This document shows, one piece after another, positions 703 to 40,776 of a stretch of 64,000 bases of DNA; the stretch's first letter is position 1, and each line of letters starts with the position of its first letter. The position numbers were made by a program, and so were the translations under genes. Under the pieces are notes generated by a model. That model had not been told where the DNA came from. It ran no database searches and saw only the letters and a list, made by a program, of their open reading frames with translations. This DNA comes from Thamnaconus septentrionalis (lineage: Eukaryota; Chordata; Actinopteri; Tetraodontiformes; Monacanthidae), in assembly GCA_009823395.1 (NCBI GenBank), contig CM020516.1, positions 8,573,001 through 8,637,000 on the forward strand, read 5' to 3'.

Positions 703-3700
703 ATGTGGACGCTCTTCTTCTGCGCTGTGATCGCCTCTTATGGAGTGCAAGGTAAGTCCACTAATGTCTTATTGTGTTACTGTGTCTGTTGAGTGTGTGC
801 AAAGGCCCAGCGTGTAGGATTTTGCAACAGCTAATGGTATTGTGAACTGTGTAAAAGTGAATATCTGTTTCCAGATCTCCCCCTTGATGTCACATCTGTC
901 TGTCAGTGTAAAATAAGAAAGCAGATCAATGTTCTGGGCGACTGTACAGCAGATGCATGGTGGCACAAAATTTCAATGTAATAATATATAACAATGTGCT
1001 TTTTTGTATTTTCTTTTTCATTATGGTAGAAAGTCTTTGGCATAAGCATCATTGTTAGTTACTGTAGACAAATTTATTTGGCCTGATTAATTGCTTTATC
1101 TTAAAGTGTGTGCTGTAGCTGAACCAATCAAGTTGTGTCTCAAACTCAATATTTCTTTTGTCTCTGTCACCACCCATCAGCCACCAATGGCTACTGGACA
1201 ACTCCAGGTACATCCAACATCCTCAAATATGTTGGTGTTTGATGGACACAGTCTGTGTTTGAAGGATCAATTAATGTATTGTGACCTGTGATAATGACCT
1301 GCTTTTCTAATGTGTTTATGGTTTATGTGTATGTTAATGTGTTTATGGTAGGGTTTATGGTGGTGTGTGTTAAAAAGTTACTGATGGGGTTCCATCCATC
1401 ACCTTCTTCTCTGTAATGTTGCGACGTTACCTCTCTTTCATACATCATCTCATTTGTTCTATTGTTTTTGCTTTACATCACACATGAACTCCAGAGTCAA
1501 CCTCCATGCCTCCAAGCACAGGTACTGAATTAAACAACGGCCAAAATATCTACCATTGATTAAGCTTTTTTTTTTTTTAACACGTTCAACCTGCTCCTCT
1601 TTCATTTCTTTCTATTAACCATCACATCACATCACATTTATCAAGATAAACTTCAAACAAAATCTCATTTGTTCTATTGTACTATAATAGCTGATTATAA
1701 CCTCAGGAAATGAACTATGCAACACGCAAAATCTCTGTGTTTGATCTTGATGTCAGAATGTGTGAACGCTTTGTTGCTCTGGTTGCACTTTGTTGCAGAT
1801 GTTGCACATCTCAGTGTTCATCAAAGTAAACACGAAAGCAAAACTAGAAGCCTTTTAAATGACTGTTTACTGGAAGGACACTTGTGTTATCTTGTCCATC
1901 TGAAGCTAGTCTGACTTGTAAACACTGCTCAACTTCAATCCCTCCACATCTCACAGGTTATGGCTCATGCCGCTACAACTGTGCCTACAACTTTGGAAGC
2001 TGCTCCTGCTACAGCTCTTGCATTTACAATGGCAACTGCTGTTCTGACTACCACTGTAAGTGTCCTTGGTGCATACTCTCAACCAATAGCATTGACAAGG
2101 CTACAGTTCCCAGGAAGCAACTATTTTTTTTTTCTTCCAGTGAAAAAGTTCTTTAGAGACTCTCAGAATCTAAGTTTGCTTTTTTAATTGTCTAAAATCA
2201 TATAGTAAAACATTGTGAATATTACAATGCACAAATTTATCAAAATGTTATTTTCTGAGAAAAGATGTAAAATGCTAAATATGATTTTGCTCGTCATTTA
2301 GATTACTGCTCAAGCTCAACTACTGCCACTGGTACCACAGGTAAAATCTGCTTTCTAATGTTTTTAATGTGTCTCTGTAAATAACTTTGTGAGTCTAAAA
2401 TGATGTGTGTTCAGTCTTGGTATCAGAATGTGTAGCAGTTCTCTTGTGTCTTGAGCTTTTAGATGCTCTTTTTAATGTAATTAAAGTCACTCTCATGTCA
2501 ACTGATGAGGTTCAATCCATCACCTTCTCCTCTGTAATGTTGTGATGTTATCTCTCCTCCATACATCATCTCATTTGTTCTATTGTTTTTGCTTTACATC
2601 ACACATGAACTCCAGAGTCAACCTCCATGCCTCCAACCATAGGTACTGAATTAAACAACGGCCAAAATATCTACCATTGATGAAGCAGTTTTTTAACATG
2701 TTCAACCTGCTCCTCTTTCATTTCTTTCTATTAACCATCCTGAATCACAATTTATCAAGATAAACTTCATACATAATCTTGTTTGTTCTACTGTTCGATA
2801 ATCGCTGATTATAACCTCAGGAAATTAACGATGCAACACTCAAAATCTCGATGTTTGATCTTTGTTGCAGATGTTGCACATCTCAGTGTTCATCAAAGTA
2901 AACACTGGGCAAAACTAAAAGCTTTTTAAATGACTGTTTAGTGGAAGGACACTTGTGTTATCTTGTCCATCTGAAGCTAATCTGACGTTTAAGCACTCTG
3001 CTGAACTTCAATCCCTCCACATCTCACAGGTCTTTACTCATGCCGCTACAACTGTGGCTACAACTTTGGAAGCTGCTCCTGCTCCAGCTCGTGCATTTAC
3101 TACGGCAACTGCTGTTATGACTACCAATGTAAGTGTCCTTGGTGCATCTTTTCAACCAATAGCATTGACAAGGCTTCAATTTATCCCAGGAAGCAACTAT
3201 TGTTGAAACATTGTAAATATTACAATGCACAAGTTTATCAGAATGTTATTTTCTGAGAAAAGATGTAAAATGCTAAATATGATTTTGCTCATCATTTAGA
3301 TTACTGCTCAAGCTCAACTACTGCCACTGGTACCACAGGTATAATCTGCTTTCTAATGTTTTTAATGTGTGTCTGTAAATAACTTTGTGAGTCTAAAATG
3401 ATGTGTGTTCAGTCTTGGTATCGGAATGTGTAGCAGTTCTCTGGTGTCTTGACCTTTTAGATGCTCTTTTTTAATGTAATTAAAGTCACTCTCATGTCAA
3501 CTGATGAGGTTCCATCCATCACCTTCTCCTCTGTAATGTTGTGATGTTACCTCTCCTTTATACATCATCTCATTTGTTCTATTGTTTTTGCTTTACATCA
3601 CACATCAGGTCCATCAACAACCCAGGCTACAACCTATGATTATGGTAATGAACTACGCAACACTCACAATCTCTGTGTTTGATCTTGATGTAGGAATGTG

Positions 3701-6700: not shown

Positions 6701-9700
6701 TTATTTGTTCATCATTTAGATTACTGCTCAAGCTCAACTACTGCCACTGGTACCACAGGTATAATCTGCTTTCTAATGTTTTTAATGTGTCTCTGTAAAT
6801 AACTTTGTGTGTCTAAAATGATGTGTGTTCAGTCTTGGTATCAGAATTTGTAGCAGTTCTCTCACTGTGACCTAGGTCTTAATAATCTTTCACGTTTGAC
6901 ATCTCAAAGTTTGTCAAGGCAAACACTGGGCAAAACTAGAACACTTTGAAATGGCTGTTTAGTGGAAGGACACTCATGTTATCTTGTCCACCTGAAGTAA
7001 ATCTGACTTGTAAACACATCCTGCTGGTATTAACTTCATTCTTTCTTTCTTATTAAAACAGGAGCGCCCTGTGGAGGCTACCTGTACGGCAGCAGTGGCA
7101 CATTTTACAGCCCCAACTATCCATCCAACTACGGAAACAATGCAAACTGTTACTGGTACATCAGACCAGGCCATCAAATCATACAGCTGGAGTTCCCCTC
7201 TGTGGAGTGAGTAACTGTGCGCCAAATCGTGTTGGCCTTTCTTTGATGACTGCTTAATGTAGCTAGATGGTCTCAAGCACTCATTGAAACCCCTGTTCTT
7301 CTTTCACAGCGTTGAGAGCCACTCAACTTGTGGTTATGATGCCATTTATGTGTACGATGGCTACAATAGCAACTCCAGACTCTTGGACACATTGTGTGGC
7401 AGGAACACATCCACCTTCTACTCCACTGGTTCCTATTTGACTGTCCGCTTTAAGGCTAATGGATATGGAACGCGACAAGGATTCCGTGCCCAGTACAGAG
7501 TTGTGTGTAAGTTTACACACTTGGCTGTGAGCTGTGCTTCTGCTAGAGCGAGTTATTGCAAGGTGGTGCTTGATTAAAACTGGGCAACACTGTTACATTA
7601 ACATTGGAACAATTAACAGGCACTTCAGGTCCTCAGTGGAAAATAATGTCTGTTTATACCAAAGTGGCTTTGGGCAGAGTTCACTTGAGCATCACACTGC
7701 TTGATGGCCCTCGTGCCATTAATATGAAGGACTGTGACAGTTCCAATGAATCTGCTTGAATGTGATTGGTCGAAGTTTTGCCCAGTTCAGGTGTTTTGTC
7801 CCCTCCCATTCCCAAAATGCTTTCCCTGTTAACAACCCACTGCTTTCCACAGGAAACCAAGTTCTCATTTTAATCATGAGTGGGTTTTGGCCGTGATGAA
7901 ACCAGCGAGTCTCACCAGAACTTGTGAGTCTTGAGATTATTTTTCCCGCTGTGTCCGCAGCTCAAGGCTCCTGCAGGTACAACTGTGGCTACCAGGTTGG
8001 AAACTGCTCTTGTTCCAGCAGCTGTCAATGGAACGGGAACTGCTGCTTTGACTACACAAGTAGGTCTCCTGAACGGCTGGAGCTGTGGTGGCTGTTTCCA
8101 CTCTAAAAGCACACACTACTCCAGCTAAAGACGGCTGGACTTTTTAAGTTTGAACTGCCAATGTCTTCAGCTGATCACTGCACAAACACAGAGCATTGTA
8201 GACATCATGCCAACGAGCGACAAATAACTTTAGGTGTTGTCAAATAGTTCTGGAGTCTTAGGCTGGACCCCCCAGAATCGCTGCTGCCTTGCTGGTTTGC
8301 AGGAGGAAAATGGCCATAAAAATTTAGTGGAATTTCTTGATGTGGAGAAAATGACGACAACGACAACAACATGAGAACATTTCATTATAGCAATTCCTGT
8401 GCTTATCGTCATAAATATGACAGGCATTTTCTATGTATTTCAGCAAAAATGAACATACGTGAATGTTTAATCTTTCTTTCAGATTACTGTCAATATTCAA
8501 CAGTGCCACCATCCACAGCAGGTATTGTATGCTCAATCTGATTCAGGTTAACCTGACTTGTAAAGAGTTTGATAATTTGTTATTTCTCTAAACACAACTG
8601 TATTTTTGAACCCACAGTTGTTTACGGCATTGATGCAGTCAATAAAATAACGCTGGCACACAAAATTCAGTGTGTTGTCATTCAGCAGAATGTTTGATGA
8701 CTGTGATTTGTTTTTCACTGTTTCTCTGCTCTCTGTCCTCCTTTCCTCTGCTTTGGGAAAATGTAACAACAGAAACAGCCACGTTACCATCAACAACAGG
8801 TAGGGAAAAGCTCCTTTAACTCAATTATTATGACTTTATAAGTATTCTTTGTGATTATTCTTGAATCACAGGAATGAGAAACATTGGAAAGCCTTTGTGA
8901 AAACTGGAAAAAATAAGTAAATAAATAAATTCCTGCTAGTCTCACTTGATTAACTTTTTTATTGTGTTCAACCTGCTTCTCTCTCATTTCTTTTTTTAAA
9001 CATCCTAAATCATAGTTCTTCAAGACAAACTATTGCTCACTCTGACATAATTCTCAATTTGTTTATGATGTCAGTGCTCATCAAGACAAACACTGGACAA
9101 AACTAGAACCTTTTTAAATGACTGTTTAGTGGAAGAACACTTGTGTTATCTTGTCCATCTGAAGCTAGTGTGATGTGTAAACACTCTGCTAAACTTCAAT
9201 CCCTCCACATCTCACAGGTTATGGCTCATGCCGCTACAACTGTGGCTACAACTTGGGAAGCTGCTCCTGCTCCAGCTCCTGTTCCTACTACGGCAACTGC
9301 TGTTCTGACTACCAATGTAAGTGTCCTTGGTGCATATTCTCAACCGATAGCATTGACAAGGCTTCAATTGATCCCAGGAAGCAACTATTGTTTTCCAGTA
9401 AAAAAGTTCTTTGGAGCCTCTCAGAGTCTGAGTTCTCCTTTTTAATGGTCTAAAATCATATTGTCAAACATTGTAAATATTCAAGTAAATTCATCCTTGT
9501 TTTGCTGTGAGTGCACATGAAGTGAAGCCCTGCACTGCTGGTCTCAGACGTATTTTATTTTGTAGAGTTTAAAGGACGCACAGGTTTATCAGAATGTTAT
9601 TTTTCTTAAAATAGATGTAAAATGCTAAATATGAGTTTTATTTGTTCATCATTTAGATTACTGCTCAAGCTCAACTACTGCCACTGGTACCACAGGTATA

Positions 9701-22335: not shown

Positions 22336-22349
22336 CCTTGAAGAGGAAC

Positions 22350-23793: not shown

Positions 23794-25132
23794 TGTGAAT
23801 TTGTTCTCCTCCTGCCTCAGATGCTGAACACCAACGCTTGCTTGCTGTATATAAAGCCTGCAGCAGATAGACAATTTTATGGAGCGCTAATAAATTCTAT
23901 GACATTGACTGATAAATTGCTGAGAAACACGCACCTGTTAAACTGTCAGAAAGTCGACACAAAGTGATTGCCAAAGGCCGTTTAATTGTCAGCACTTTTG
24001 GCCACTTAAAAATGAGCAGATCTTGTGTTTGCAACACCTGCTGAAGGTGACTTGTGACGTACAACTCAAAAAAAAAGTTCAGGACTTGCTTTGGTGCAAA
24101 GCCGTCACAGTGAACATTAGACGCTGAATAAATGTAGACGTGAGTTGCACTCATATTTAATTTTATTCATACATATTTTTATATTTTAAGTTATTAATAT
24201 ATAATCATTGTCCTATTTTATTTATTCTTATTTTACTTATTATTTGAATAAAGAAAATTGAATACATTTCTGTGGATATCATTTTATATTGTAGTTTAAC
24301 AGATATGGGTTTAAGGTGATGAAACAATGAGAATCAATTGACTCCTTTGAGTTTAATCCTACAGGTTTTCCCCTTGTGCCCCCTAGAGTTAATACCAACT
24401 GGGTTAACTGCATTAACTCTGTGCTTGACACATAATGTAGCATTACATGAGTTCAGTTATTAAAAAGGGTTAAATAATGTATAATAAAATTCACATTTAC
24501 TGCACATTTAAATGTTTTCCACACATATTACCTTTTCCACAAATGTGTTTTCATCATTTTCTTAAAGTGTTACATCACTTATTGTCATCATTATTGTTGT
24601 TAAAAAAAGAAATGTTATCAAATGTATATATGTTTTTCTTTTATTAGTTAGCAAATACATGTATCAAATAACAGGCTACAAAGTTACTTTATTAACCCTC
24701 TAAAAGAGGCTTTGACATTGTTGATGAAAAATTAACGTGTGGAACCAATACGTTGCAATGTGTTCAAAACTGGAAAAAAAAAAGAAAAAAAAAAAAGTAA
24801 GGGCTCCTTCATAAATGCCTTTTTTCTAGTACTCTGTATTTCCTGTAATGGACTAATCCAACAACGTTTATAGAAGATCAGTCAGGGCATGTTGTGAAAC
24901 ACACAATGTGACACTATGTGTCTTGTGCCTCTGAGAAAAAACAATGTACTCTGCCCTGTTGAATCAGGTGTTCATGTAGGATTTTGCTCTTTGTGTTCAC
25001 GGATGTCGGATGTTGACTTACCTGCAAGTACAGAACATCTGAGAAAAACTTGCTTTTACAATGAGGCGCACGCTGTTGACCAGCCCTTAAGTATGTTGTG
25101 TTTCTCATGACATTCATTTTGTGTCTTCTCCT
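23430..25132 (-). repeat. left arm of large inverted repeat (promoter + exon 1 + upstream)
   Basis: Reverse-complement counterpart of 26800-28490. It contains intron 1, the signal-peptide exon, the promoter and about 650 bp of further upstream sequence. The outer boundary is sharp at the shared 11-mer GTGTCTTCTCC (25121-25131, mirrored at 26800-26810). The arms have diverged by substitutions and by differing A/T-rich insertions near 24480-24780, so the inversion is not brand new. Confidence 0.75.
23847..23855 (-). promoter_or_regulatory. TATA box of the pseudogene promoter
   Basis: On the minus strand this reads TTTATATAC at the same distance from the ATG as in genes 1 and 2. The promoter copy extends to about 24480 and includes the palindromic 15-mer at 24088-24102. 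It could still start transcription toward the pseudogene. Confidence 0.5.
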
Positions 25133-25139
25133 CGACATA

Positions 25140-26280
25140 TAACATTACAAGCCTTAATTGTCTTAAGGCTGGACCCAAGCATTCGAGCTACCAGAATCTA
25201 ATAACATCTGGGCATCCCCAATATACATGCACATATGTCCCCAGTGAGTCGGATGAACATAGGGCACAATTGGGAGATGTAATGATCCTCATTAAATGAT
25301 GCGTTCTGGGAGTGAGATACATTCTATGGGCAAACTTGTAGTGTATAAATTGGTAGTTGGGATTTTTAGAAGTGTTAGACAAATTTGCCCACACTGTGTC
25401 CCAATTTATCTATTCTCCATTGCTTAAATTAGGTCTCGATGCCATCAAGCTCCTGCTGGTAATGTATTATTGGGATTAAATATATATTTATAGAGTTTAG
25501 AAACTAAACCTCGTGTGGGACCTAGTGGGACAAATAAATTATGAAGAGGGTGAGTAAAAGGTGCCAAACCCCATGCGACACTGCAAGCCTTCATGGCTGA
25601 TCTTAACTGTAGATAGAAAAAATGGGATAAATGTGGTAAATCATGACAGATTTGCAGATTGTTAATAGTTCTTAGACCACTATTACTATAGATGTCTTTT
25701 AAGATATAAACTCCCTATCTCTGCCAACTTGGAAATGAGAAAGGTAAGTTACCAGTTAGAAGTGAAAAGTTATCAAATACCGGTGAATGGTTGTGCCATT
25801 TAGCATCAACATGTCTATGCCTCATTACTGTGCGAAAGGTGGCAAGCAAGAACGTATTTAGGGAGCCCAGGCGTAATTTGGCTTTTTTCAAAGGTATATT
25901 ACAGTACACTGGGTACACTGAGTACACTGATAAACACTGAGATCCCCGTTCATTACGGGTTCCAGTGCCCTCCTGAATGTTTACTGAGTGTTGTATTTAG
26001 AGTGGTTGGATAGATGTTCAGTGTCAAAACGCAGTAAGACTGTCGCTTTGGCCAGATCGCTCTTTGTCTTGGGTGCTGTTGTCTGTTGCATAGCAACATG
26101 ATTGAAGAACAGAGTAACATAGTAATCGTTTCTTGGACCACCTCCTCGTCACCAATGCTAACTGCCCTATGTTCTGTCAGTGTGTTTCTTCCCACCGGGG
26201 AGCCACTGTCGCACCTTGCTTGCTCTGGGTGCCCCAGTTGGTTTTTTCTCTTTGAGACGCCTGTGGGTGTAATTTAGCGC
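25140..26280 (-). mobile_element. L1-like LINE fragment in the palindrome spacer
   Basis: The minus-strand open segment 25394-25188 resembles the ORF2 C-terminal region of fish L1-like elements (KNPNYQFIHYKFAHRMYLTP, then a C..C..D.LGTYVH-type cysteine segment and WGCPD). The segment 25927-25715 is compatible with an interior portion of the same ORF, and 26230-25950 is a reversed copy of the dispersed repeat found 3' of both genes. The order is consistent with a single decayed minus-strand LINE insertion. Confidence 0.6.
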
Positions 26281-26799
26281 TGCACAGATAAAATTTGATT
26301 GGTTGTGTTCGACATAAACATTTGAAAACAAAGCTTTCGTGCCGTATGAACCAGTGACTAAGAACTTGCTACGTATACTTGGCAAATAATTCTTGCAAAC
26401 TACTGAAGCAAAACGAGAAACTGTGGCGCGTTCAGTCTTAACTCCTGTTGTGTTGTTTCTGTTGAAGCTTCTCAACTCATGTTACAGCATTTGTGTGAGC
26501 TACGGGGCAAATATTAAAAACATATTTTCAAAAGAGATGCGAATAAAGAAAGAAATCCAGTTTGAAAGTTAGAATTTAAAACACCCAGAAATTGTTTCAG
26601 TGAACCCTTTCCTGTCAGAAATTGTAGATGTGGGTAACAATGATATATAATTGTCAGTTGTTTTAATGTTATATCTGGCAAGTTCAAAAATGAAGAAAAC
26701 TAATAAAAATAGTTCGCCTCTTTGCATCAGAGAGCTGATTTCATTATTTATGTTTTAAAGTGTCCCAGTGGAACTTAGATTAGGTTTATTATCTTTGAA
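26281..26799. other. spacer, no gene; contains a dispersed repeat
   Basis: No coding sequence recognised. Positions 26471-26575 are clearly similar, on the same strand, to 40531-40627 inside IKZF5 intron 1; both share GGGGCAAATATTAAAA and AATAAAGAAAGAAATCC. This marks a short interspersed repeat of unknown class. Confidence 0.5.
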
Positions 26800-28490
26800 G
26801 GAGAAGACACAAAATGAATGTCATGAGAAACACAACATACTTTAAGGCTGGTCAACAGCGTGCGCCTCATTGTAAAAGCAAGTTTTTCTCAGGTGTTCTG
26901 TACTTGCAGGTAAGTCAACATCCGACATCCGTGAACACACAGATGTTGGATGTTCAATGAGCAAAATCCTACATGAACACCTGATTCAACAGGGCAGAGT
27001 ACATTGTTTTTTCTCAGAGGCACAAGACACATAGTATCACATTGTGTGTTTCACAACATCCCCTGACAGATCTTCTATAAACATTGTTGGATCAGTCCAT
27101 TACAGGAAATAAAGGGAAATAGAAAAAAGGCATTTATGAAGGAGACCACAGTCACGGTCCTTAATTATTATTATTATCATTATTATTATTATTGCTATTG
27201 CAACATATTGATTTCAATAAATAAAAACAACATCAAAGCCTCTCTGACCAATTAAATAAAAAATACATTCAATCAGATTTCTTTTCTTTTTTTTAACAAT
27301 AATAATGATGACAATAAGTGATATAACACTTTAAGAAAATGACCAAAAGTTATTTGTGGAAAACATCTAAATGTGTAGTCAATGTGCCAACTCAAGGGGC
27401 AAAAGAGCACAAGAGGAAAACCTGTAGGATTAAACTCAAAAGGGTCAAATGATTCTCATTGTTCCATCACTTTGTAAACCCATATCTGTTTAACTACAAT
27501 ATAAAGTCATATTCACAGAAATAATATTTTATATTCTTTTCAAATAAGTAAAAGAAGAATAATTACAATTGCACAATGATTATATATTAATAATTTAAAA
27601 TATAAAAATATGTATGAATAAAATTAAATATGAGTGCAACTCACATCTACATTTATTCAGCGTCTAATGTTCACTGTGACGGCTTTGCACCAAAGCAAGT
27701 CCTGAACTCTCCTGTGCAGCGAAAGACTTTTTGAGTTGTACGTCACAAGTTACCTTCAGCAGGTGTTGCAAACACAAGATATGGTCATTTTTAAGTGGCC
27801 AAAGTGCTGACAATTAAACAGCCTTTGGCAATCACTTTGTGTCGACTTTCTAACAGTTTAACAGGTGCGTGTTTCTCAGCAATTTATCAGTCAATGTCAT
27901 AGAATTTATTAGCGCTCCATAAAATTGTCTATCTGCTGCAGGCTTTATATACAGCAAGCGTTGGTGTTCAGCATCTGAGGCAGGAGGAGAACAAATTCAC
28001 AATGTGGACGCTCTTCTTCTGCGCTGTGATCGCCTCTTATGGAGTGCAAGGTAAGTCCACTAATGTCTTATTGTGTTACCGTGTCTGTTGAGTTTGTGCT
28101 CTTTTTCGCTTACTTAAGGCCCGGCGTGTAGGACTTGGCAACAGCTAATGGTATTGTGAACTGAGTAAAAGTGAATCCCTGTTTCCAGATCTCCCCCTTG
28201 ATGTCACATCTTTCTCATAACAGCTATGATGTCGGTGTAAAATAAGAAAGTAGATCAATGTTCTGGGCGACTGTACTGAAGATGCATGCCTGCACAAAAT
28301 TTCAATGAATAACAATGTGCTTTTTTCGGTTTTTTTCATCATGGTAGAAAGTCTTGGGCATAAGCATCATTGTTAGTTACTGTAGACAGATTTATTTGCC
28401 CTGATTAAGTGCTTTATCTTTAGACTGTGTGCTGTAGCTGAACCAATCAAGTAGTGTCTCAAACTGAATTTTTTTTTTTTCTCTGTCAGC
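26800..28490 (+). repeat. right arm of large inverted repeat (promoter + exon 1 of gene 2)
   Basis: Mirror of 23430-25132. It supplies the functional-looking promoter of gene 2. It includes an (ATT)n-rich stretch near 27160-27195 absent from the left arm, the palindromic 15-mer at 27682-27696, the TATA box and the signal-peptide exon. Confidence 0.75.
27944..27952 (+). promoter_or_regulatory. TATA box of gene 2
   Basis: TTTATATAC, 58 bp upstream of the ATG at 28002. The region is nearly identical to the gene 1 promoter except for a 4-bp difference in a short CAAG/GCAAG repeat just downstream. Confidence 0.7.
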
Positions 28491-31400
28491 ACCCATCAGC
28501 CAAATGGTTACAATGGCCTCCATACATAATCTCATTTGTTCTCTCTATTTGTTTTACATCACAATCAAACGACAACTCCAGGGTCAAACCAGGCTTCAAC
28601 TCCAGGTACTGAATTGTGCGACACCCAACAAATCTGTGTTTGATCTTGCCAGTACAATGTGTGGACGCTTGCTTTGAACTGCCTCTGACAAGTGTGATAT
28701 CAGTCTCTATCCTCCTTTATTCCCCGCTTTAAGTTGTTTTTCTTTTAACATGTTCAACTTGCTTTTTTCTCATTTCCTTCTATTAACCATCCTAAATGAC
28801 AATTCATCAAGACAAACTTCACATATTATCTCATTTGCTCTGTTATTTTTGTTTTACATCTCACGTCGACACCAGCGTCAATGACGATTATAACCTCCTA
28901 AGGAAATGAACTATGCAACAGTCAAAATCTGTGTTTGATCTTGATGTCAGAATGTGTGAACACTTTGTTCCTGGCATGTCTTTGATGCATTTCAAGCTTG
29001 TCCATTCTTTACTTTTTACAGCCCAAAAGACTCAGACGTACTTCAGTGTCCTAATTGTTGTCTTTAGTCCCCCCCAATAAATCACCATCAATATGCAGCT
29101 ACAACAGAATTCACAGGTTCTGAACTATAAAACACCCAAAATCTCTGTGTTTGATTTTGACAAAACAATATGTGGTCACTTGCTTTAGACTGTTTTAAAT
29201 GTGTTAAACCTGCTTCTCTCTCATTTCCTTTACTCAACCATCAGAAATCAAAATCCATCAGGACAAACTACTGCTCACTCTGCTGGATGTCTTCATATTT
29301 TTTGTGTCTGACATCTCAGTGCTTGTCAAGAGACAAACACTGGACAAAACTAGAATATTTTTTAAATGACTGTTTAGTGGAAGAACGCTTGTGTTATCTT
29401 GTCCATCTGAAGCTAGTGTGATGTGTAAACACTCTGCTAAACTTCAATCCCTCCACATCTCACAGGTTATGGCTCATGCCGCTACAACTGTGGCTACACC
29501 TTGGGCAGCTGCTCCTGCTACAGCTCTTGCATTTACAACGGAAACTGCTGTTCTGACTACCACTGTAAGTGTCCTTGGTGCATATTCTCAACCAATAACA
29601 TTGACAAGGCTTCAATTGATCCCAGGATGCAACTATTACTTACTATTACTATTACTAACTACTCCAGTAAAAAAGGTTCCTGAGAGCCTCTCAGAGTCTG
29701 TTTTTTTTTTTTTTTAAATGTTTAAAAACCTTTTGTATCGTAAATATTCCAGTAAATTTAGAGGATGCACAGGGTTTACAAATCAGAATGTTATTTTCTT
29801 AGAATAGATGTCAAAGGCTAAATAAGATTTTTATTTGTTCATCATTTAGATTACTGCTCAACTGTTGTCACCGATGTGATCGATGCCACCGATGTGATCG
29901 ATGCCACTGATGTGACCGATGCCACTGATGTGACCGATGCCACTGATGTGACCGATGCCACTGATATCACCGATGCCACTGATGTGACCGATGCCACTGA
30001 TGTGACCGATGCCACTGCTGTCACCGATGCCACCGATGTGACCGATGCCACCGATGTGACCGATGCCACCGATGTGACCGATGCCACTGCTGTCACCGAT
30101 GCCACTGATGTGACCGATGCCACTGATGTGACCGATGCCACTGATATCACCGATGCCACTGATGTGACTGATTCCACTGATGTGACTGATTCCACTGATG
30201 TGACCGATGCCACTGATATCACCGATGCCACTGATGTGACTGATTCCACTGATGTGACCGATGCCACTGCTGTCACTGATTCCACTGATGTGACCGATGC
30301 CACCGATGTGACCGATGCCACTGATGTGACCGATGCCACTGATATCACCGATGCCACTGATGTGACCGATGCCACCGATGTGACCGATGCCACTGATGTG
30401 ACCGATGCCACTGCTGTCACCGATGCCACCGATGTGACTGATTCCACTGATGTGACTGATTCCACTGATGTGACCGATGCCACTGATATCACCGATGCCA
30501 CTGATGTGACTGATTCCACTGATGTGACCGATGCCACTGATGTGACCGATGCCACTGCTGTCACTGATTCCACTGATGTGACCGATGCCACCGATGTGAC
30601 CGATGCCACTGATGTGACCGATGCCACTGATGTGACCGATGCCACTGATATCACCGATGCCACTGCTGTCACTGATTCCACTGATGTGACCGATGTGACC
30701 GATGTGACCGATGCCACTGATGTGACCGATGCCACTGATGTGACCGATGCCACTGCTGTCACCGATGCCACCGATGTGACCGATGTGACCGATGCCACTG
30801 ATGTGACTGATGCCACTGATGTGACCGATGCCACTGCTGTCACTGATTCCACTGATGTGACCGATGTGACCGATGTGACCGATGCCACTGATGTGACTGA
30901 TGCCACTGATGTGACCGATGCCACTGCTGTCACTGATTCCACTGATGTGACCGATGCCACCGATGTGACCGATGCCACTGATATCACCGATGCCACTGCT
31001 GTCACCGATGCCACCGATGTGACCGATGTGACCGATGTGACCGATGCCACTGATGTGACTGATGCCACTGATGTGACTGATGCCACTGATGTGACCGATG
31101 CCACTGCTGTCACTGATTCCACTGATGTGACCGATGCCACCGATGTGACCGATGCCACTGATATCACCGATGTGACCGATGTGACCGATGTGACCGATGC
31201 CACTGATGTGACTGATGCCACTGATGTGACCGATGCCACTGCTGTCACTGATTCCACTGATGTGACCGATGCCACTGATGTGACCGATGCCACTGCTGTC
31301 ACTGATTCCACTGATATGACCGATGCCACTGATGTGACCGATGCCACCGATGTGACCGATGCCACCGATGTGACCGATGCCACTGATGTGACCGATGCCA

Positions 31401-34321
31401 CCGATGTGACCGATGCCACTGCTGTCACCGATGCCACCGATGTGACCGATGCCACCGATGTGACCGATGCCACTGATGTAACAGGTAAAAATTGCTCCCT
31501 CAGGCTTGTCTTCACATTTTTTTGTTTCACATCTCACTGCTCATCAAGACAACCACAAGTACCCTTGGGTGCATATTCTCACCAATAGCACTCTGTTATA
31601 CTTGCATCCTTCCACATAAATCTGACTTGTAAACACATCCTGCTGGTATTAACTTCATTCTTTCTTTCTTATTAAAACAGGAGCGCCCTGTGGAGGCTAC
31701 CTGTACGGCAGCAGTGGCACATTTTACAGCCCCAACTATCCATCCAACTACGGAAACAATGCAAACTGTTACTGGTACATCAGACCAGGCCGTCAAATCA
31801 TACAGCTGGAGTTCCCCTTTGTGGAGTGAGTAACTGTGCGCCAAATCGTGTTGGCCTTTCTTTGATGACTGCTTAATGTAGCTAGATGGTCTCAAGCACT
31901 CATTGAAACCCCTGTTCTTCTTTCACAGCGTTGAGAACCACCCATCTTGTGGTTATGATGCCATTTATGTGTACGATGGCTACACTAGCAGCTCTAGACG
32001 CGTGGGCACATTGTGTGGCAGGAACACATCCACCTTCTACTCCACTGGTTCCTATTTGACTGTCCGCTTTAAGACTGATGGATCTGTAACGCCACAAGGA
32101 TTCCGTGCCCAGTACAGAGTTGTGTGTAAGTTTACACACTTGATTGTGAGCTGTGCTGCTGCTAAGGAGATTTGTTGCAAGGTGGTGCTCGATTAAAACT
32201 GGGCCTTTGTGCCATTAATATCAAGGACTGTGACAGTTCCAATGAATCTGCTTGAATGTGATTGGTCGAAGTTTTGCCCAGTTCAGGTGTTTTGTCCCCT
32301 CCCATTCCCAAAATACTTTGCCTGTTAACAACCCACTGCTTTCCACAGGAAACCAAGTTCTCATTTTAATCATGAGTGGGTTTTGGCCGTGATGAAAACC
32401 AGCGAGTCTCACCAGAACTTGTGAGTCTTGAGATTATTTGTCCCGCTGTGTCCGCAGCTCAAGGCTCCTGCAGGTACAACTGTGGCTACCAGGTTGGAAA
32501 CTGCTCTTGTTCCAGCAGCTGTCAAAGGAACGGGAACTGCTGCTTTGACTACAGAGGTAGGTCTCCTGAACGGCTGGAGCTGTGGTGGCTGTTTCCACTC
32601 TAAAAGCACACACTACTCCAGCTAAAGACGGCTGGACTTTTTGAGTTTAAACTGCCAATGTCTTTAGCTGATCACTGGACAAACACAGAGCATTGTAGAC
32701 ATCATGCCAACGAGCGACAAACTTTAGGTGTTGTCAAATAGTTCTGGATTCATAGGCATTTGCAGGAAGAAAATGTCCATAAAAATTAGGTGGAATTTCT
32801 CGAGTTGGAAAAAACGATGACAACGACAACAACATGAAAAAATATGATTGTATGATTACTGTAGGGCTGCAGCGATCAAATATTTTGGTAATCGATTATT
32901 CTATCTCATATTCCATCGATTCATTGAGTAATTGGATAAAATATACGTTTGCTTAATTAAGGCCCACTCTGCAGCAGAACGCGGCCATTAATGTCAGTGT
33001 GCAAATTCACACCAGACGTGGCGCAGGTGCATTCCAGATGTGTCTCAGAAGTGTGAAACCGCTCCGCCCTGGTACCATTGCCAAAAGATTGATTCCGTCT
33101 TCTCCCGATTTGCATTGGCCGCATGTCCTGTGACGGAAGCATGTTGCGTCACACTAAAAAGAGTCCGTGCAAAACGTGACCTTTAAATTTAATTAAACGA
33201 CGCCATGAGGCAGATGAAATTCCTCAATTATTTTTGGGAATTGCTACTCGAATTACTCGAGGATTCGTTGCAACTCTAAATTCCTGTGCTTATCGTAATA
33301 AAAATGAAGTATTTTCCACGTATTTCAACAAAAATGAACATACATGAATGTTTAATCTTTCTTTCAGATTACTGTCAATATTCAACAGTGCCACCATCCA
33401 CAGCAGGTATTGTATGCTCAATCTGATTCAGGTTAACCTGACTTGTAAAGAGTTTGATAATTTGTTATTTCTCTAAACACAACTGTATTTTTGAACCCAC
33501 AGTTGTTTACGGCATTGATGCAGTATATAATGCTGCCACACAAAATTCAGTGTGTTGTCATTCACAATACACTGAATGACATCACAGTTTGATGACTGTG
33601 ATTTGTTTTTCACTGTTTCTCCGCTCTCTGTCCTCCTTTCCTCTGCTTTGGAAAAATGTAACAATGGAAACAGCCACGTCACCATCAACAACAGGAGCCA
33701 CCACAGGTAGGGAAAAGCTCCTTCAACTCAATTATTAACAACTTTATGAGTTTTTATTGTTTGTGTTTATTCTTGAATCACAGGAATGAGAAACAATGGA
33801 AAGCCTTTGTAAGAAATGAATGAACAAATAAATATCTGCTAGTCTCACTTGATTAACTGATCCAGCATCCTCACCTCTGGAATGTGTCTTAACTGATCAT
33901 TACACTGAAAAATGATTAAATAGCTGTCTGGAAATCACGTGGCAGCTATATCACCATCCCACCATTAACACTCATTTTATCTTGTCCATGTGAAGCTAAT
34001 CTGACTTGTAAACACTCTGCTAAACTTGAATTCTTCCACATCTCGCAGACTATGATCTCTCATGCTTTGACCGTTCAGTGCTTGTCAAGATGAACACTTG
34101 GCAAAACCAAAGCGCTTTTAAGGCATTCAATGGAAGGACACTAGTGTTACCTTGTCTGTCTGCAGCTCCTGGCTGTGGTGGCTACCTGTCCGGCTCTGGG
34201 ACCTTCACCAGCCCGAACCACCCCAACTACTATTATGACAACACCTATTGTGCCTGGCAGCTAAGGGCTGATTACGACCAAAGGGTCTACTTGTCCATAT
34301 CGTACCTGCAGTGAGTGGACA

Positions 34322-34352
<31 letters not shown>

Positions 34353-37113
34353 ATCTTTAAGTGTAAATAAGCAGCTCTATCAACTACAAATTGATACATA
34401 TTGAAAAATATAGATATTCTTATTTTTAATTTGTTTTCTAAATATGTGTTTTGCCTGGGGATCCGGCAAAAAAGTCACAATTTTAAAACTGTTCTTACTT
34501 AGTTAGCTTATTTTTAAAAAAAATAAAATAAAAATTAAAAAAAAATAATAGAAAATTAACTATGCCATTTGCTTCATGCATCTGATAGTCAAATAGGTTG
34601 AATATTCTAATTATTAAAAAAAAAAAAAGAAGTCTCAAAAATTTGGAGCGGGAAGAATTAGCCAGTTGAATAACATCCCCACTTACAGTCTACACAACCA
34701 TTTCTGAATGAAACAGATTGGAGAACTGCTGCAGCTGTGACTACATTAAAGTCTATGACGGGCCAAGTGTTGGCTCAAGACTGCTGGGGACAGTGTGCAA
34801 CAACAGTCTGGATTCCTTTTATTCATCCTCCAATTACTTAACCGTCGTCTTCCGAACTGATGGATCAGTTGTTGGCAGAGGATTCAGCGCTGACTTCATA
34901 AGCACTTTACCAACAAGCTCAGGTGTGCGCCTTTTTGGACCTTATATTGGTTAAAAACAATAAAGAAGGAATGAATGATTGAATGAATGTTTTCCCACGG
35001 CAGGTCAAGTGAACTGTTCTTCAGACAACATGAGGATTGTGATTGAAAAGAGTTACCTGGACTCTCTGGGCTACTCTGCCGACCGCCTGTATCTGGACGA
35101 CCCAAACTGCAGACCCTCGGTCACCAGATATCAAGTCATCTTCAGTTTCCCCATCACCGCTTGTGGCAACGTTCAAAAGGTGGGAAAATGAAGGCGTACT
35201 TTCCCGGTACTTTTGCCCCCAAACTACTGCAAAGTGTGAATTTTTTTTTCCTCCACTAATCAAACAGACTGAAAATGGCAAGGTGGTGTACTCCAACACT
35301 CTCCGAGCCTACGCCTCAAGCGGCGGGGAGATCTCGCGCCAGTCCAACCTGAAGCTCAACGTCACCTGTCGAATGGAGCAGGACTCTTTGTCGCACATCA
35401 TGTACCTCGTCCATCACCGCGGAAACAGCAGCATCGCCGGAACAGGCCGATTCAACACCAGCATGCAGTTCTACACATCCAGCAGCTACTACTACCCGGT
35501 GAGCTCTGCACGCGAACGCTAGATCAACGGGTAGTACAGGGGTCGGCAACCTTCGCGATCAAAAGAGCCATCTGGCCCCATCTGCCGTCAAATAACATTC
35601 ACCTCTAGTCAGGGGGCGTTATATTGCCTCTTTAAGAGGGTGATGGAGACCTGAGGCTGTGGGGACTTTTGCAACTGTCTCTTAATTAGCGTGACTTTGA
35701 GTTCTGCATATTATTTGACAGCAATAAAAATATTGTGTTGGAAATTAAACGTCCGGTGATTGACGTTTGCATCAACGTTACAATATCTGACGATCTAGGT
35801 CGCAAAATGCTGAAGGGTTACTAGAGCGCAATTTGCACTTCTGACTCATCAGGTGTCGCGTTTCTGGGCGTTATTTGCGCCTACATATCATTAGCGCACA
35901 AACCTTTGTGAATACGACGCAAAGAAGCCAGAGATAGTGAGTAACTCGAAGCAGAAGTTCAACTTTGTCATCTATCCACAGTCTTTTTGTGAGCGTTGTT
36001 AGTTAGCGAGCTGCTACAATACCGGGTTCTAGGTCTTCGTCTTGGTCCTTTAGGAAGTAAAACCACAGCGCCACATGAGGCCTGACGTAGGTACTTCCCA
36101 GCGTTTCCGTGTACACGGGGATATTATTTTTGGAGATGGCTTCGTTTAATCTTTTTTTTTTTTCCCCAAATGCTTTTCTTAACACGCTTGGTTTAAAAAA
36201 TGTCCTCTCCATGTAAACGGGGCCATAAAAATGGCTAAAATGTATTTCCATGTTATTAAGTGAGCCACTGCAGAGGCGCAGAACAGCCACATGAGACTCT
36301 TGAGCCGCAGGTTGCCGACCGCTTAGGTAGGAGGTTGACGGGACAGTGCTGACGCTGCTCTCCCTCTTCCAGGTGACTCAAGTCCCGTACGAGGTGTCGC
36401 TCAACCAGAACATGTACGTCCAAGTGGATGTGAGTGGGCCCAACAGGGCGCTGGTCCTCGCTCTGGACACCTGCGTGGCCTCGCCATCGCCTGACGATTT
36501 CCACACCCGAGCATACTACCTGGTCCGCAACGGGTGAGACGAGTGCCCCTTTGCGTACCCACTTTACTTCATCTGTTTGACCACTCTGTGGCAAAAAACT
36601 TTGATTTTCTCACCATCCTAACAGATGAAGATGTTGTGAGATTCATGTCTCGGTAGACGTGGGGAACTGTTTTGGTAACTCTGTCCATCATTTTCCCTAC
36701 CAGGTGCCAAATGGACAGCACCTACCACTCCACTGTCAGTGGCACCACAAACTTAGGACGTTTCAGTTTCAAGGCCTTTCAGTTCCTGCGAGCCAAAGAG
36801 TCGGTTTACATCCAGTGCAAGGTCCTGATCTGCCCGTCCAGTAACCCTTCCCGCTGCCAGCAAGGCTGTAGGAGGCGTGTGGCCAGAGACCTGGGCTCCA
36901 AACATTACACCAGAACTCTGGTCCTAGGACCCATTCAGCTTAAAGGTCAGTTTCCTCATTTCTGTGTGCCAACAAAAGGGCAATCAATCAACCAATTAAG
37001 GAAGTTATGGCGTCATTGAAAAATTAAAAAATAATAATAAAACATATTAATATTGATTTTCAGCAGAACCAAAGCTGGCAGAGGAGAAGGCCCAAGAGAA
37101 GAAGGAGGCTTGA
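28002..37113 (+). CDS. secreted CUB / SMB / ZP protein with giant Thr-Asp repeat exon (gene 2)
   Basis: Paralogue of gene 1, about 1,170 residues predicted. Exons: signal peptide 28002-28050; linker 28582-28605 (GSNQASTP); SMB 29466-29564; repeat exon 29850-31484; CUB 31681-31825 and 31929-32125; SMB-A 32458-32556; linker 33368-33406; linker 33674-33706; CUB-C 34166-34310 and 34717-34922; ZP 35004-35179, 35268-35498, 36373-36533, 36704-36945 and 37067-37113. Frames join throughout in phase 1 up to the ZP exons. The ZP domain differs from gene 1 by only about four residues. The second SMB-C of gene 1 is deleted here. Two introns carry hAT-like insertions. No membrane anchor follows the ZP domain. 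The small linker exons are the least certain part. Confidence 0.8.
28051..29465 (+). other. gene 2 intron region with decayed linker exons
   Basis: One plausible linker exon, 28582-28605, is flanked by CAG and GTACTG and is in frame. Counterparts of other gene 1 linkers have decayed: near 28500 the ATNGYW exon lost its donor, and near 28880 the counterpart of 3609-3644 has AAGGAAAT in place of a GT donor. A weak 18-nt candidate lies near 29089-29106. Confidence 0.4.
29850..31484 (+). repeat. 1,635-nt in-frame minisatellite exon encoding (Thr-Asp-X)n
   Basis: The exon starts exactly like the 39-nt SMB linker exons of gene 1 (YYCS, supplying the last SMB cysteine). It then runs about 535 residues of Thr-Asp-Ala/Thr-Asp-Val, with variants TDS, TDI and TAV, and ends in GATGTAACAG before GTAAAA. 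The DNA unit is 18 bp (ACCGATGCCACTGATGTG) with 9-bp half-units. There are no stops or frame slips, and the length is divisible by 3. The product would be strongly acidic and rich in possible O-glycosylation threonines. Comparison with the gene 1 linker (ACTGCCACTGGTACCACAG) suggests the array grew from the A-T-G-T segment of that exon in the same frame. Copy number is probably polymorphic. Confidence 0.85.
31681..32125 (+). other. gene 2 CUB domain (amplified type)
   Basis: Exons 31681-31825 and 31929-32125. The first half is almost identical to the gene 1 amplified CUBs. The second half carries distinct substitutions ([24 protein letters not shown]), so it was not fully homogenised. It is present once here against five copies in gene 1. 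Confidence 0.85.
32872..33278. mobile_element. non-autonomous hAT-like element in gene 2 intron
   Basis: 407 bp bounded by imperfect terminal inverted repeats (TAGGGCTGCAGCGAT at the left, ATTCGTTGCAACTCTA at the right). These are typical of a common fish hAT MITE type. Flanking 8-bp direct repeats are GATTACTG (32864-32871) and AATTCCTG (33279-33286), 6 of 8 matching. The equivalent gene 1 introns read continuously through CAATTCCTGTG, the empty site. There is no transposase ORF inside. Confidence 0.75.
34321..34348. repeat. poly-T tract in CUB-C intron of gene 2
   Basis: Run of about 28 T right after the donor of the first CUB-C exon. Gene 1 has a much shorter interrupted T-run at the same place. 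Confidence 0.8.
35537..36324. mobile_element. non-autonomous hAT-like element in ZP intron of gene 2
   Basis: 788 bp with terminal inverted repeats CAGGGGTCGGCAACC (left) and GGTTGCCGACC plus degenerate GCTT (right). Target duplications are GGGTAGTA (35529-35536) and AGGTAGGA (36325-36332). The empty site in gene 1 reads GGGTAGGA once, one mismatch from each. The subterminal sequence about gagccatctggcc / gagccgcaggttgcc is typical of this vertebrate hAT family. No transposase is encoded. Confidence 0.85.
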
Positions 37114-38933: not shown

Positions 38934-40776
38934 TCACTTGTGCTGCCCTCGGGCGAAGTGGCACGCAAAGTCGTACTTGCTCTTGCACTTGTGGCCGCAG
39001 ATGTTGCACTGGAATGGGTTTTCGTAGCCGTGGCAGCCCATGTGGATGGTGTAGAGGATGTTGTCGGGGAAGTAGATGTCACAGTGCTGGCAGTGGTGCA
39101 GAGCGTGCGGCTCCTGCAGCGGCGCCGACAGGCCCGCCGCCGGCGTGCTGGGCCGACTGTTGGAGATGCTCGGGGTGCTGGTGCGCCCGCTGTGCTCGCT
39201 GCAGGGCCCGGCGCCAGGGCTGCAACTGCTGTGAGGAGGCGCACGCGGTTCGGGCGTGATGGGGGAGGAGGAGGAGGCGTGGGCCATGCTGGCCACGGGG
39301 GCCGTGGCGGGGTGCGGCTGCTGGATGAGGAAGGGCTTCTCGTCCACCATGGACTCCGCCCCCGGAGACACGGGGGGCTGAGAGTGGGACTGGGACTCGG
39401 ACGGGAGACTGGCCAGCTGGCCTGCCAGGGTGGACAGCTGGTTCAGAGGGTTGTCCATGACCACGTCGTGGCGACGGTGATTTTGCTCCGACTGGTGGCC
39501 CTCGGCGACGCCGGCGGCCCGACTCGGCCCGTCGTAGGTCTCCTGCCGCAGGTGGGGCAGCTCGTGCGAGAAGTCGCTCACGTCGTCGCCCTTGTGCACC
39601 ACCATGGACGGGGGGCTGAAGTTGATGAGGAGTCGGCGGCCGTAGCCGAAGGACGTGGCCTTCTTCTGCAGGACGCTCAGCATCTTTTTGTGCGAGAGCG
39701 AGCGAGCGCCCTTCATGGGCAGCAGTTTGTGGCGCCGGCGGCGGTGGTGCGACAAGTTGCTGCGGTCGCTGCAGCGGAAGGAGCACAGCTCGCACTTGTA
39801 CGGCTTCTCGCCGGTGTGCGAGCGCATGTGGGCTTCCAGGTGGCGCTCGTACGCCGACGCGAAAGGGCACAGGTGGCAGCGGTGAGGTTTCTCTCCTGCG
39901 GGTGGAGGAGAGCAGCGTCAGTGGTCAAGCTCGGGCCGCCAGTATTTCCCGAGCAACAGACGGTGGACACTTACCCGTGTGGATGCGGATGTGTTCGATG
40001 AGTCTTGCCGTTCCCCTGGTGGCGTAGTTACAGTAGCGACACTTGAGTTTCCCATCGTAGGTCCTCTCAAAACCGTCCACCAGTATGCCTGAGCTGTCCT
40101 CCAGGGTCACGTCCACTGACGGGTGGTCCAGGCCGTTTTGACTACAGTCTGCAGACAAGATTTTTAATTATGACCCAAAAATATACAATGATGGAAATGT
40201 TTTGATTGTATCTTTGGCTGACTTTTTGGATGAAGTAGCCTCTTCTCTGTGACCAACAATACATTACCACGACACAAAGTGAGTGCATCTGGAATATCCA
40301 TTAAAAAAAAAAAAAAAAAGTTGTTCTTATTGTAATTTCATGTATAACTACACAATAACATCTAGCTATATAAAACTACATGTTTATATTTATACATATC
40401 ACTAATGCATGTCCTTCTGTATTTCTATATTCTATAAGAGCTTTGCCGTTCACCCTGCAACTCTCTCTCTCTCTCTCTCTCTCTCCATTTCTTTGTATTT
40501 CCTTTTCACCTCAACTGGTCAACGCAGATGATCAACTCATGTTACAACATTACAGCGGGGGCAAATATTAAAAGCATATTTTCACAGTAGATGCAAATAA
40601 AGAAAGAAATCCGGTTTGAAAGTGCAAATAGTGAAGTCATCACCTGGTGGCAGCTCATCCGCTTCTTTGACGCCGCTGACGGAGCCTGATATCATGTTGA
40701 CATGTTGAGTTTGTTGGCTCAGATACTCTTGGAAATCCTTCACAAAGTCCAGCGTGTCCGGCTTTTCCTCACCCAT
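38934..40776 (-). CDS. ikzf5: zinc finger protein Pegasus (Ikaros family zinc finger 5)
   Basis: Nuclear C2H2 zinc-finger transcription factor of the Ikaros family; 422 residues predicted, close to the human length. Coding exons on the minus strand: 40776-40644, 40148-39975, 39895-38934 (stop TGA at 38936-38934); all junctions are phase 1. The start MGEEKPDTLDFVKDFQEYL matches the family's N-terminus. Three N-terminal DNA-binding fingers lie at about residues 81-101, 109-129 and 137-158. Two C-terminal dimerisation fingers lie at about 371-391 and 399-421 (HHCQHCDIYFPDN, FQCNICGHKCKSKYDFACHF). The middle is Ser/Pro-rich and disordered, with the conserved VDNPLNQLSTLAGQL. The last exon is GC-rich, which creates long antisense open frames. 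Confidence 0.95.
40531..40627. repeat. dispersed repeat in IKZF5 intron 1
   Basis: Similar to 26471-26575. It ends only about 16 bp from the splice donor of the first coding exon (minus-strand GT at 40643-40642). A (CT)n microsatellite at 40461-40487 lies beside it. Confidence 0.5.

What the first reader, a model, noticed from the sequence alone, without database searches (positions are those of the whole stretch)
29850..31484. A 39-nt linker exon has become a 1,635-nt exon coding about 180 Thr-Asp-X tripeptides
The exon has the same start (YYCS, finishing the SMB domain) and the same phase-1 borders as the short linker exons of gene 1. Inside it is an 18-bp minisatellite kept in frame with no stop over about 535 residues. 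The peptide is a strict tripeptide repeat, T-D-A/T-D-V. This is architecturally reminiscent of the Thr-Ala-Ala repeats of fish antifreeze glycoproteins, but acidic. It could be a heavily O-glycosylated, calcium- or mineral-binding stalk on a ZP-polymerising secreted protein. I know of no described (TDX)n domain of this size; function is inference.
Basis: partly seen in the sequence, partly recalled or inferred. Interest (0 to 1): 0.88.

Follow-up and report, generated by a model that had tools for sequence, protein, structure and literature searches.

The report
Linker exon grown into acidic stalk
In a fish gene predicted to make a secreted mucus-type protein, a linker exon that is 39 bases long in its neighbour copy has likely grown into a 1,635-base exon coding 179 near-identical Thr-Asp-X triplets, which would give the protein a long, strongly negative spacer that likely holds water and calcium.

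Summary
Observation confirmed. Window 29850-31484 is an open 1,635-nt, phase 1/1 exon with GT-AG borders coding 179 tripeptides, 163 exactly Thr-Asp-X. It sits in an intact 15-exon gene model of 1,168 aa: signal peptide, SMB, (TDX)179, CUB, SMB, CUB, ZP, of the teleost 'DMBT1-like/CUZD1' family. The 12 exons of the same type in the paralog next door are 39 nt (11) or 42 nt (1). The array's tail is in register with the 39-nt linker (15/22; 30 of 20,000 shuffles), so it likely grew from it. 416 post-SMB linkers in 109 of 120 listed homologs have median 14 and maximum 51 aa, against 545 here. Skipping the exon would create a TGA.

O-glycosylation is doubtful (no Pro, Asp after nearly every Thr). 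Best reading: a polyanionic, extended spacer born by coding-minisatellite expansion. A tolerated neutral VNTR is a serious rival. Expression is untested.

The parts
28002..28050 (+). Exon 1: start codon and likely signal peptide
   Evidence: 100% identical to gene 1 exon 703-751; signal peptide judged by eye
29466..29564 (+). Exon 2: first SMB domain, 7 of 8 Cys
   Evidence: PF01033 E 2.7e-05
29850..31484 (+). Exon 3: expanded linker exon; last SMB Cys, then (TDX)179
29870..31483 (+). The coding minisatellite itself (18-bp unit ACY GAT GCC ACY GAT GTG)
31681..31825 (+). Exon 4: CUB 1, first half
31929..32125 (+). Exon 5: CUB 1, second half
32458..32556 (+). Exon 6: second SMB
   Evidence: PF01033 E 0.0011, 19.6 bits, under the curated cutoff 23.1
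33368..33406 (+). Exon 7: unexpanded 39-nt linker exon of the same type
33674..33706 (+). Exon 8: short Ser/Thr linker exon; 33 nt here, 21 nt in gene 1
   Evidence: weak polypyrimidine tract, may be optional
34166..34310 (+). Exon 9: CUB 2, first half
34717..34922 (+). Exon 10: CUB 2, second half
35004..35179 (+). Exon 11: ZP module, N-terminal part
   Evidence: Pfam matched only the ZP-C half, ZP-N assigned by eye
35268..35498 (+). Exon 12: ZP module
36373..36533 (+). Exon 13: ZP-C
   Evidence: PF00100 E 2.4e-31
36704..36945 (+). Exon 14: ZP-C end and a basic stretch
37064..37113 (+). Exon 15: C-terminus and stop; no membrane anchor seen by eye
2302..2340 (+). Gene 1: 39-nt linker exon of the same type, unexpanded state
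6720..6758 (+). Gene 1: 39-nt linker exon, one of four whose upstream intron matches that of exon 3 best (86.8% over 106 columns)

Best explanation
Exon 3 of this predicted fish DMBT1/CUZD1-like gene is a short linker exon that probably grew by in-frame duplication of an 18-bp unit into 1,635 nt coding 179 Thr-Asp-X tripeptides, and the resulting 54-kDa polyanionic chain likely works as a long, hydrated, calcium-attracting spacer. Shown by the sequence: the open exon, its splice borders, the intact gene model, the short homologous exons in the sister gene, the register of the unit with the short linker, and a calculated charge of about -165 over 538 residues with no Lys, Arg, Pro, Cys or aromatic residue. 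Inferred: expression, disorder and function. Proposed mechanism: the CUB and ZP part would polymerise into secreted filaments, as other ZP proteins do (recalled), and the chain would hold the first SMB domain away from the filament (roughly 0.2 um at full stretch, by arithmetic with a recalled rise per residue). There it would form an anionic brush that binds water and Ca2+ and keeps a mucus-like matrix swollen. Its length could change by 9- or 18-bp steps without harming the frame.
For: Open exon, 15 exons with GT-AG borders, one 1,168-aa ORF. Pfam SMB, two CUBs, ZP-C. 187 homologs; the 120 listed bear fish names, most of them DMBT1-like or CUZD1 by eye. 12 gene-1 exons and one further gene-2 exon of the same kind are short. 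Upstream intron homology 86.8% over 106 columns, 12 of them exonic. Array tail versus linker tail 15/22, reached by 30 of 20,000 shuffles that kept the last 4 nt; this register is one of the two equal best. Exact internal repeats up to 112 bp. 416 linkers in 109 of 120 homologs: median 14 aa, maximum 51, 4% Asp; here 545 aa, with 165 Asp in the 538-residue array. Exon skipping joins T|GA into a stop; scans that recovered 12-13 of 13 known short linkers found no substitute exon in the E3-E4 intron. The array has no AG dinucleotide (about 90 expected by base composition), so no internal acceptor. 12 of 15 exons compared with gene 1 have equal length (0 indels in 1,797 nt) against 37 gaps in 2,649 aligned intron nt.
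Against: No transcript, protein or population data. Ka/Ks between genes 1 and 2 over 12 of 15 exons is 0.85 (26 nonsyn, 10 syn), not clear purifying selection. Frame integrity of the array is not significant by itself: intron indel rates predict 0.5-2.4 frame breaks for 8-40 substitutions (P of zero 0.62-0.09). Linker exon 8 does differ in length between the genes, by 12 nt in frame, so linker length alone drifts. No relative with a long TDX array was listed. Part of the literature on fish cuzd1 points to gill development and not mucus (PMC8129531 passages). Ca2+ binding was not tested.
Confidence: 0.5

Rival explanations
1. Neutral passenger: a coding VNTR tolerated in a non-essential linker of a young, relaxed duplicate; the repeat has no selected job and its length drifts.
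For: Ka/Ks 0.85 between paralogs over 12 exons; absence of stops and frameshifts in the array is expected without selection; linker exon 8 also varies in length; none of the 13 hits at E<=0.001 is a named fish protein; human DPP has in-frame length indels without apparent effect on function (PMC9141616 passages).
Against: A 54-kDa chain of charge -165 in a secreted protein is unlikely to be without effect (inference). The motif stays T-D-X in 163 of 179 units although D->A, A->S, V->I and T->I variants exist. The compared exons keep length where introns do not.
Confidence: 0.32
2. Mucin-like, heavily O-glycosylated stalk, with sugar and not acid as the active surface.
For: 178 Thr and 14 Ser in 538 residues; other linkers of the family are T/P/S-rich; a Drosophila transferase variant glycosylates a Glu-containing Thr repeat (PMC6115407 passages).
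Against: 0 Pro in the array; Asp is at +1 of nearly every Thr, and acid next to the acceptor is generally disfavoured (recalled). GalNAc-T1 has a pocket favouring Pro at +3 (PMC10901373 passage), which never occurs here.
Confidence: 0.1
3. Assembly or annotation artefact: array length wrong, or exon never used in mRNA.
For: No reads or RNA were seen; tandem arrays are prone to assembly error (general knowledge).
Against: No N in the window; irregular mix of unit variants; GT-AG borders; skipping gives TGA.
Confidence: 0.06
4. Folded acidic beta-solenoid (hexapeptide left-handed helix) that could bind Ca2+ or ice in ladders.
For: AlphaFold2 on 183 aa gives one three-residue strand every six residues; the top Foldseek matches are mostly enzymes known for left-handed hexapeptide helices (fold recalled), but none reaches E<=0.001; weak PDB sequence match to a thermal hysteresis protein, 1ezg, E 0.0015.
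Against: pLDDT only 54. An antisense frame of the same DNA, part of no gene model here, folds as beta structure with higher pLDDT, 74, so the call is likely a repeat bias of the method. Stacked Asp would repel (inference); 10 V-V breaks spoil the six-residue period.
Confidence: 0.02

Closest known systems
Teleost DMBT1-like / CUZD1 proteins (SMB-CUB-ZP)
   Same: Same domains; identity of the 120 listed homologs to the CUB-ZP part 33-71%; short linkers after each SMB. Cod cuzd1-like transcripts rise in larvae under one rearing-water regime and are suggested to act in host-pathogen contact (PMC5938384 passages).
   Different: Of 416 counted linkers in 109 homologs none exceeds 51 aa, and they are T/P/S-rich; here 545 aa, acidic, Pro-free. 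The count misses one 232-aa Cys-free T/E-rich stretch in catfish P0005, which lies behind an SMB-like motif but after one more Cys, and a sole protein (P0069) has a 9-residue T/P/E repeat at its N-terminus and short T/P/E linkers.
Dentin phosphoprotein (DPP part of DSPP, Asp/Ser-rich repeats)
   Same: Long acidic, short-period coding repeat in a secreted protein; all 32 indels known there are divisible by 3 (PMC4707025 passages).
   Different: Thr-Asp-X, not Asp/Ser; only 14 Ser of 538, so dense phosphorylation is unlikely; other gene and domains. In DPP the -1 frame is open and pathogenic; here the two other forward frames run at most 17 and 35 codons without a stop.
Antifreeze glycoproteins (Thr-Ala/Pro-Ala)n of cod and notothenioids
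   Same: Thr tripeptide coded by 9-nt units grown by internal duplication; one tomcod gene has over 200 tripeptides (PMC8622921 passages).
   Different: No Asp in the unit; polyproteins with periodic Arg/Lys; born from a trypsinogen intron-exon junction or from non-coding DNA, not from a linker exon; no Arg or Lys in this array.
Human DMBT1 SRCR-interspersed domains and SRCR/SID copy-number alleles
   Same: Linkers between Cys-rich domains of a mucosal CUB-ZP protein; tandem copy number changes the protein, and polymorphism is linked to bacterial and hydroxyapatite binding (PMC5435793 passages).
   Different: There whole SRCR+SID blocks vary; here an 18-bp unit inside one linker exon. No SRCR match here.
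Bacterial and unnamed metagenomic proteins with (T/S)DX runs
   Same: The same tripeptide run, in P0126 just behind an N-terminal signal-like stretch.
   Different: 7-16 consecutive tripeptides in nine of 75 hits, unrelated proteins; convergent (inference). Many other hits of that search were mammalian GARIN2/FAM71D with a shorter TDI/TDV run.

Membership tests
Teleost DMBT1-like/CUZD1 (SMB-CUB-ZP) family | SMB, CUB and ZP domains in one secreted protein | tested here: met
   Pfam PF01033, PF00431 x2, PF00100; 187 homologs, 120 listed, all with fish names. Signal peptide and lack of anchor by eye only.
Teleost DMBT1-like/CUZD1 (SMB-CUB-ZP) family | Short T/S/P linker after each SMB (a usual, not a formal, feature) | tested here: not met
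   First linker 545 aa, second 24 aa; counted family linkers median 14, maximum 51. Treated as a variant within the family because domains, intron phases and homology fit.
DMBT1 in the strict (mammalian) sense | SRCR domains | tested here: not met
   No SRCR in the Pfam scan of gene 2
Antifreeze glycoprotein | (Thr-Ala/Pro-Ala)n | tested here: not met
   0 TAA/TPA of 179 tripeptides; 14 TAV only
Dentin phosphoprotein / SIBLING | Dense phosphorylated Ser in Asp/Ser repeats | tested here: not met
   14 Ser in 538 residues; phosphorylation itself untested
Dentin phosphoprotein / SIBLING | Binds Ca2+ and guides mineral | not testable with these tools
   Charge -165 calculated only
Mucin PTS domain | Pro/Thr/Ser-rich sequence | tested here: not met
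   Pro 0, Thr+Ser 192 of 538
Mucin PTS domain | O-glycosylated | not testable with these tools
   No protein data
Plasmodium HRP (PF05403) | His-rich repeats | tested here: not met
   Pfam score above cutoff (50.4 against 45.8, E 3.4e-13) but 0 His in the array: taken as a composition artefact
Left-handed beta-helix (hexapeptide) | Six-residue strand/turn solenoid | tested here: inconclusive
   Model pLDDT 54, exceeded by the antisense control at 74

The most novel reading that the evidence does not exclude
A new secreted polyanion domain, functionally a Thr-based counterpart of dentin phosphoprotein, has been born inside a fish mucosal ZP protein from a 39-nt linker exon. Its 18-bp unit is inherently safe for coding: no codon is one step from a stop, there is no AG acceptor, and shifted frames soon stop. 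It could therefore grow about 40-fold without passing through a broken intermediate, and it now sets calcium and water binding of a ZP matrix.
Probability: 0.2. Interest if true: 0.75.

Novelty: new variant of a known kind. Interest (0 to 1): 0.5.

Why it matters
It may catch a protein domain near its birth. The unexpanded exon is present 12 times in the sister gene next door and once more in the same gene, so before and after states can be compared in one locus. Beside dentin phosphoprotein and antifreeze glycoproteins it would be another vertebrate case of a short-unit coding minisatellite making a large secreted repeat. It also suggests testable rules (stop-proof codons, acceptor-free unit, self-terminating other frames) for which minisatellites can expand inside exons.

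Tried and rejected
Beta-solenoid: suggested by AlphaFold2 but rejected as evidence, because the antisense frame used as a control folded with higher confidence; Foldseek had 64 matches at E<=10 and none at E<=0.001. Plasmodium HRP and MgtE_N Pfam matches of the array: low-complexity artefacts. PDB match 9e5c (E 1.3e-66): another T/E/A-rich repeat, composition only. Frame conservation of the array as proof of selection: rejected after the indel estimate. Array as an inserted foreign satellite: rejected, since it lies in register with the short linker. Downstream intron of exon 3 as further homology: its first part did not match the intron after the gene-1 linkers, so the 3' side rests on the exon tail and on homology nearer to the CUB exon only.

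Papers: ten searches, read as listings with titles and abstract starts; the search for the motif as words listed 12 papers, none about such a repeat by its listing. Passages only, from find calls, were seen of eight papers; no paper was read whole. The DMBT1-zebrafish search gave nothing used.

Homologs include isoforms of the same species, so counts of linkers are not independent; 11 of 120 proteins did not match the SMB motif and 67 of 187 were not listed. In one search I entered 38 intron gaps; sums to 37; the conclusion is the same. The exon comparison took 12 of 15 exons (not 3, 7, 8), ungapped, with the first gene-1 copy for exons 4-6 and 96 of 99 nt of exon 6; exon 8 differs by 12 nt in frame. 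Gene 1 was located exon by exon, not assembled into a full model. A possible extra 24-nt linker exon at 28582-28605 appears only under loose rules.
Full report
OBSERVATION. The stated exon exists as described. It is 1,635 nt, begins after the acceptor atttag|ATTACT, ends at TAACAG|gtaaaa, and is phase 1 on both sides. Tandem Repeats Finder reports 90.5 copies of an 18-bp unit at 29869-31479, score 2333, against 232 for the next array in the 64-kb window. In the coding frame there are 0 stops in 544 codons; the other forward frames hold 73 and 72. The repeat is 179 tripeptides: 72 TDV, 68 TDA, 14 TAV, 14 TDS, 8 TDI, 2 IDA, 1 TDM. Thr and Asp make up 64% of the array (178 T and 165 D in 538 residues), with calculated charge -165 at pH 7 and mass 54 kDa.

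GENE. Fifteen exons from 28002 to 37113, with GT-AG borders, join into one open frame of 1,168 aa: likely signal peptide, SMB, (TDX)179, CUB, SMB, short Ser/Thr linkers, CUB, ZP. Pfam confirms two CUBs and ZP-C and finds SMB twice, the first above and the second below the curated cutoff. A protein search with residues 596-1168 gave 187 hits; [quoted passage not shown] No membrane anchor is seen at the C-terminus by eye; the basic stretch and the patch behind it resemble the cleavage site and hydrophobic patch of other ZP proteins (recalled, not tested). I place it in the teleost SMB-CUB-ZP family and not in DMBT1 in the strict sense, because no SRCR domain was found.

ORIGIN. Gene 1 (exons from 703 to 20576, located by homology, not assembled) is a tandem paralog with 12 SMB exons, 6 CUBs and one ZP; its ZP exons are 98.7-100% identical to those of gene 2. 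Each SMB exon is followed by an exon starting ATTACTG that supplies the last Cys: 12 in gene 1 (11 of 39 nt, one of 42), two in gene 2. Only one of these 14 is expanded. The intron end before exon 3 is homologous to that before the gene-1 linkers (86.8% over 106 columns, 12 of them exonic), the first 12 nt of the exon match, and the last 22 nt match the 39-nt linker at 15 positions, a value reached by 30 of 20,000 shuffles that kept the last four bases; the register is one of the two equal best anywhere in the array, nine bases apart. The first part of the downstream intron did not match. The six-codon unit TDATDV thus sits on the linker's TTATGT. Exact internal repeats up to 112 bp at offsets of 5 to 22.5 units show later block duplication. 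Among 416 linkers after SMB motifs in 109 of 120 homologs the median is 14 aa and the longest 51, T/P/S-rich with 4% Asp; the linker here is 545 aa. This count depends on a Cys-to-Cys rule: a catfish homolog (P0005) has a 232-aa Cys-free T/E-rich stretch close behind an SMB-like motif that the rule does not count, and a sole homolog (P0069) has a 9-residue T/P/E repeat at its N-terminus. So linkers of this family do grow elsewhere, but none listed is a TDX array.

IS THE EXON OBLIGATE? Joining exon 2 to exon 4 would make the codon T|GA, a stop. A scan for replacement phase-1 exons in the E3-E4 intron found none; as a control the same scan recovered 12 of 13 known short linkers, and all 13 with a looser setting, which still found none there. 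The array contains no AG dinucleotide (about 90 expected from base composition; the only AG of the exon is its last two bases), so no usual splice acceptor lies inside. Exon 3 therefore cannot be skipped alone without truncating the protein. This is a sequence argument; no transcript was seen.

SELECTION. It is not strong: none of the array's codons is one substitution from a stop (3 of 544 codons are, all in the SMB part; 18 of 61 sense codons are in general). Only indels count. In nine introns compared between genes 1 and 2 there are 28 indels not divisible by 3 per 470 substitutions; with 8-40 substitution events in the array one expects 0.5-2.4 frame breaks, so zero is unremarkable (P 0.62-0.09). 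For the gene, 12 of 15 exons compared have equal length (0 indels in 1,797 nt) against 37 gaps in 2,649 aligned intron nt (Fisher P about 3e-9, where I entered 38); linker exon 8 differs by 12 nt in frame. Ka/Ks is 0.85 (26 nonsyn, 10 syn), with exon 5 alone giving 13 nonsyn and 1 syn (P 0.054 against the rest). So the gene model is intact, but strong purifying selection is not shown, and a neutral VNTR remains a serious rival.

STRUCTURE AND CHEMISTRY. AlphaFold2 drew a six-residue solenoid with pLDDT 54. As a control I folded an antisense frame of the same DNA, which is part of no gene model here, and obtained beta structure with pLDDT 74; the solenoid is thus not evidence. Foldseek gave no match at E<=0.001. 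With no Pro, and Asp after nearly every Thr, mucin-type glycosylation is less favoured than in sister linkers (inference); but a Drosophila transferase variant accepts an acidic Thr repeat (PMC6115407, passages), so it stays open. With only 14 Ser, dense DPP-like phosphorylation is unlikely.

COMPARISON. Functionally the nearest known thing is dentin phosphoprotein: an acidic, short-period coding repeat whose 32 known length indels are all divisible by 3 (PMC4707025, passages) and have no apparent effect on function (PMC9141616, passages). [quoted passage not shown] here the two other forward frames run at most 17 and 35 codons without a stop, so frameshifts would truncate. Antifreeze glycoproteins share Thr tripeptides and growth by duplication only (PMC8622921, passages). 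A search for long TDX proteins of about 642-2,044 aa gave 13 hits, none named as fish; nine of 75 hits in the exon-only search have 7-16 consecutive (T/S)DX units, so the tripeptide run has arisen elsewhere on a small scale.

MECHANISM. Most likely the chain is an unfolded, polyanionic spacer between the first SMB and the CUB-ZP part of a filament-forming secreted protein, swelling the matrix and attracting Ca2+. The sequence facts above are shown; expression, disorder, Ca2+ binding and benefit are inferred. Two cod cuzd1-like genes are higher in larvae under one rearing-water regime (PMC5938384, passages), which fits a mucosal role for the family; salmon Cuzd1, in contrast, is discussed in gill development (PMC8129531, passages). 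Neither says anything about this exon.

Noticed in passing
22354-23793 (- strand): Remnant of a third, inverted gene copy between genes 1 and 2: exon 1 at 23793-23745 (100%) and fragments of CUB 2 and ZP exons at 22647-22558 and 22411-22354.
   Followed up: partly
23467-25142 and 26789-28332: Large inverted repeat (pieces 91-97% complementary) around the 5' end of gene 2, with the inverted remnant's start exon on the other arm.
   Followed up: no
4126-16869: Gene 1 carries near-identical tandem blocks of about 2.93 kb with CUB, SMB and SMB exons (CUB starts 4126, 7062, 10000, 12932, 15871); copy number may vary, like human DMBT1 SRCR/SID blocks.
   Followed up: partly
31929-32125 against 4374-4570: CUB 1 second-half exon differs by 13 nonsynonymous and 1 synonymous changes between paralogs, while the adjacent 103-nt intron is identical: possible diversifying selection, not significant on its own.
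   Followed up: partly
38937-39917 (-) and 59940-60698 (+): C2H2 zinc-finger and homeodomain ORFs, which look like IKZF5 and HMX3; that is the neighbourhood of CUZD1/DMBT1 in human 10q26 (recalled).
   Followed up: partly
21705-22448 (+): Reverse-transcriptase fragment of a retroelement (PF00078, E 1.3e-14) downstream of gene 1.
   Followed up: no
P0060, P0109 (homologs): Two fish homologs carry 16- and 10-residue charged tandem repeats near their C-terminus: a different part of the same family also expands.
   Followed up: no
28582-28605 (+): Possible extra 24-nt linker exon of gene 2 between exons 1 and 2, seen only under loose splice rules.
   Followed up: no
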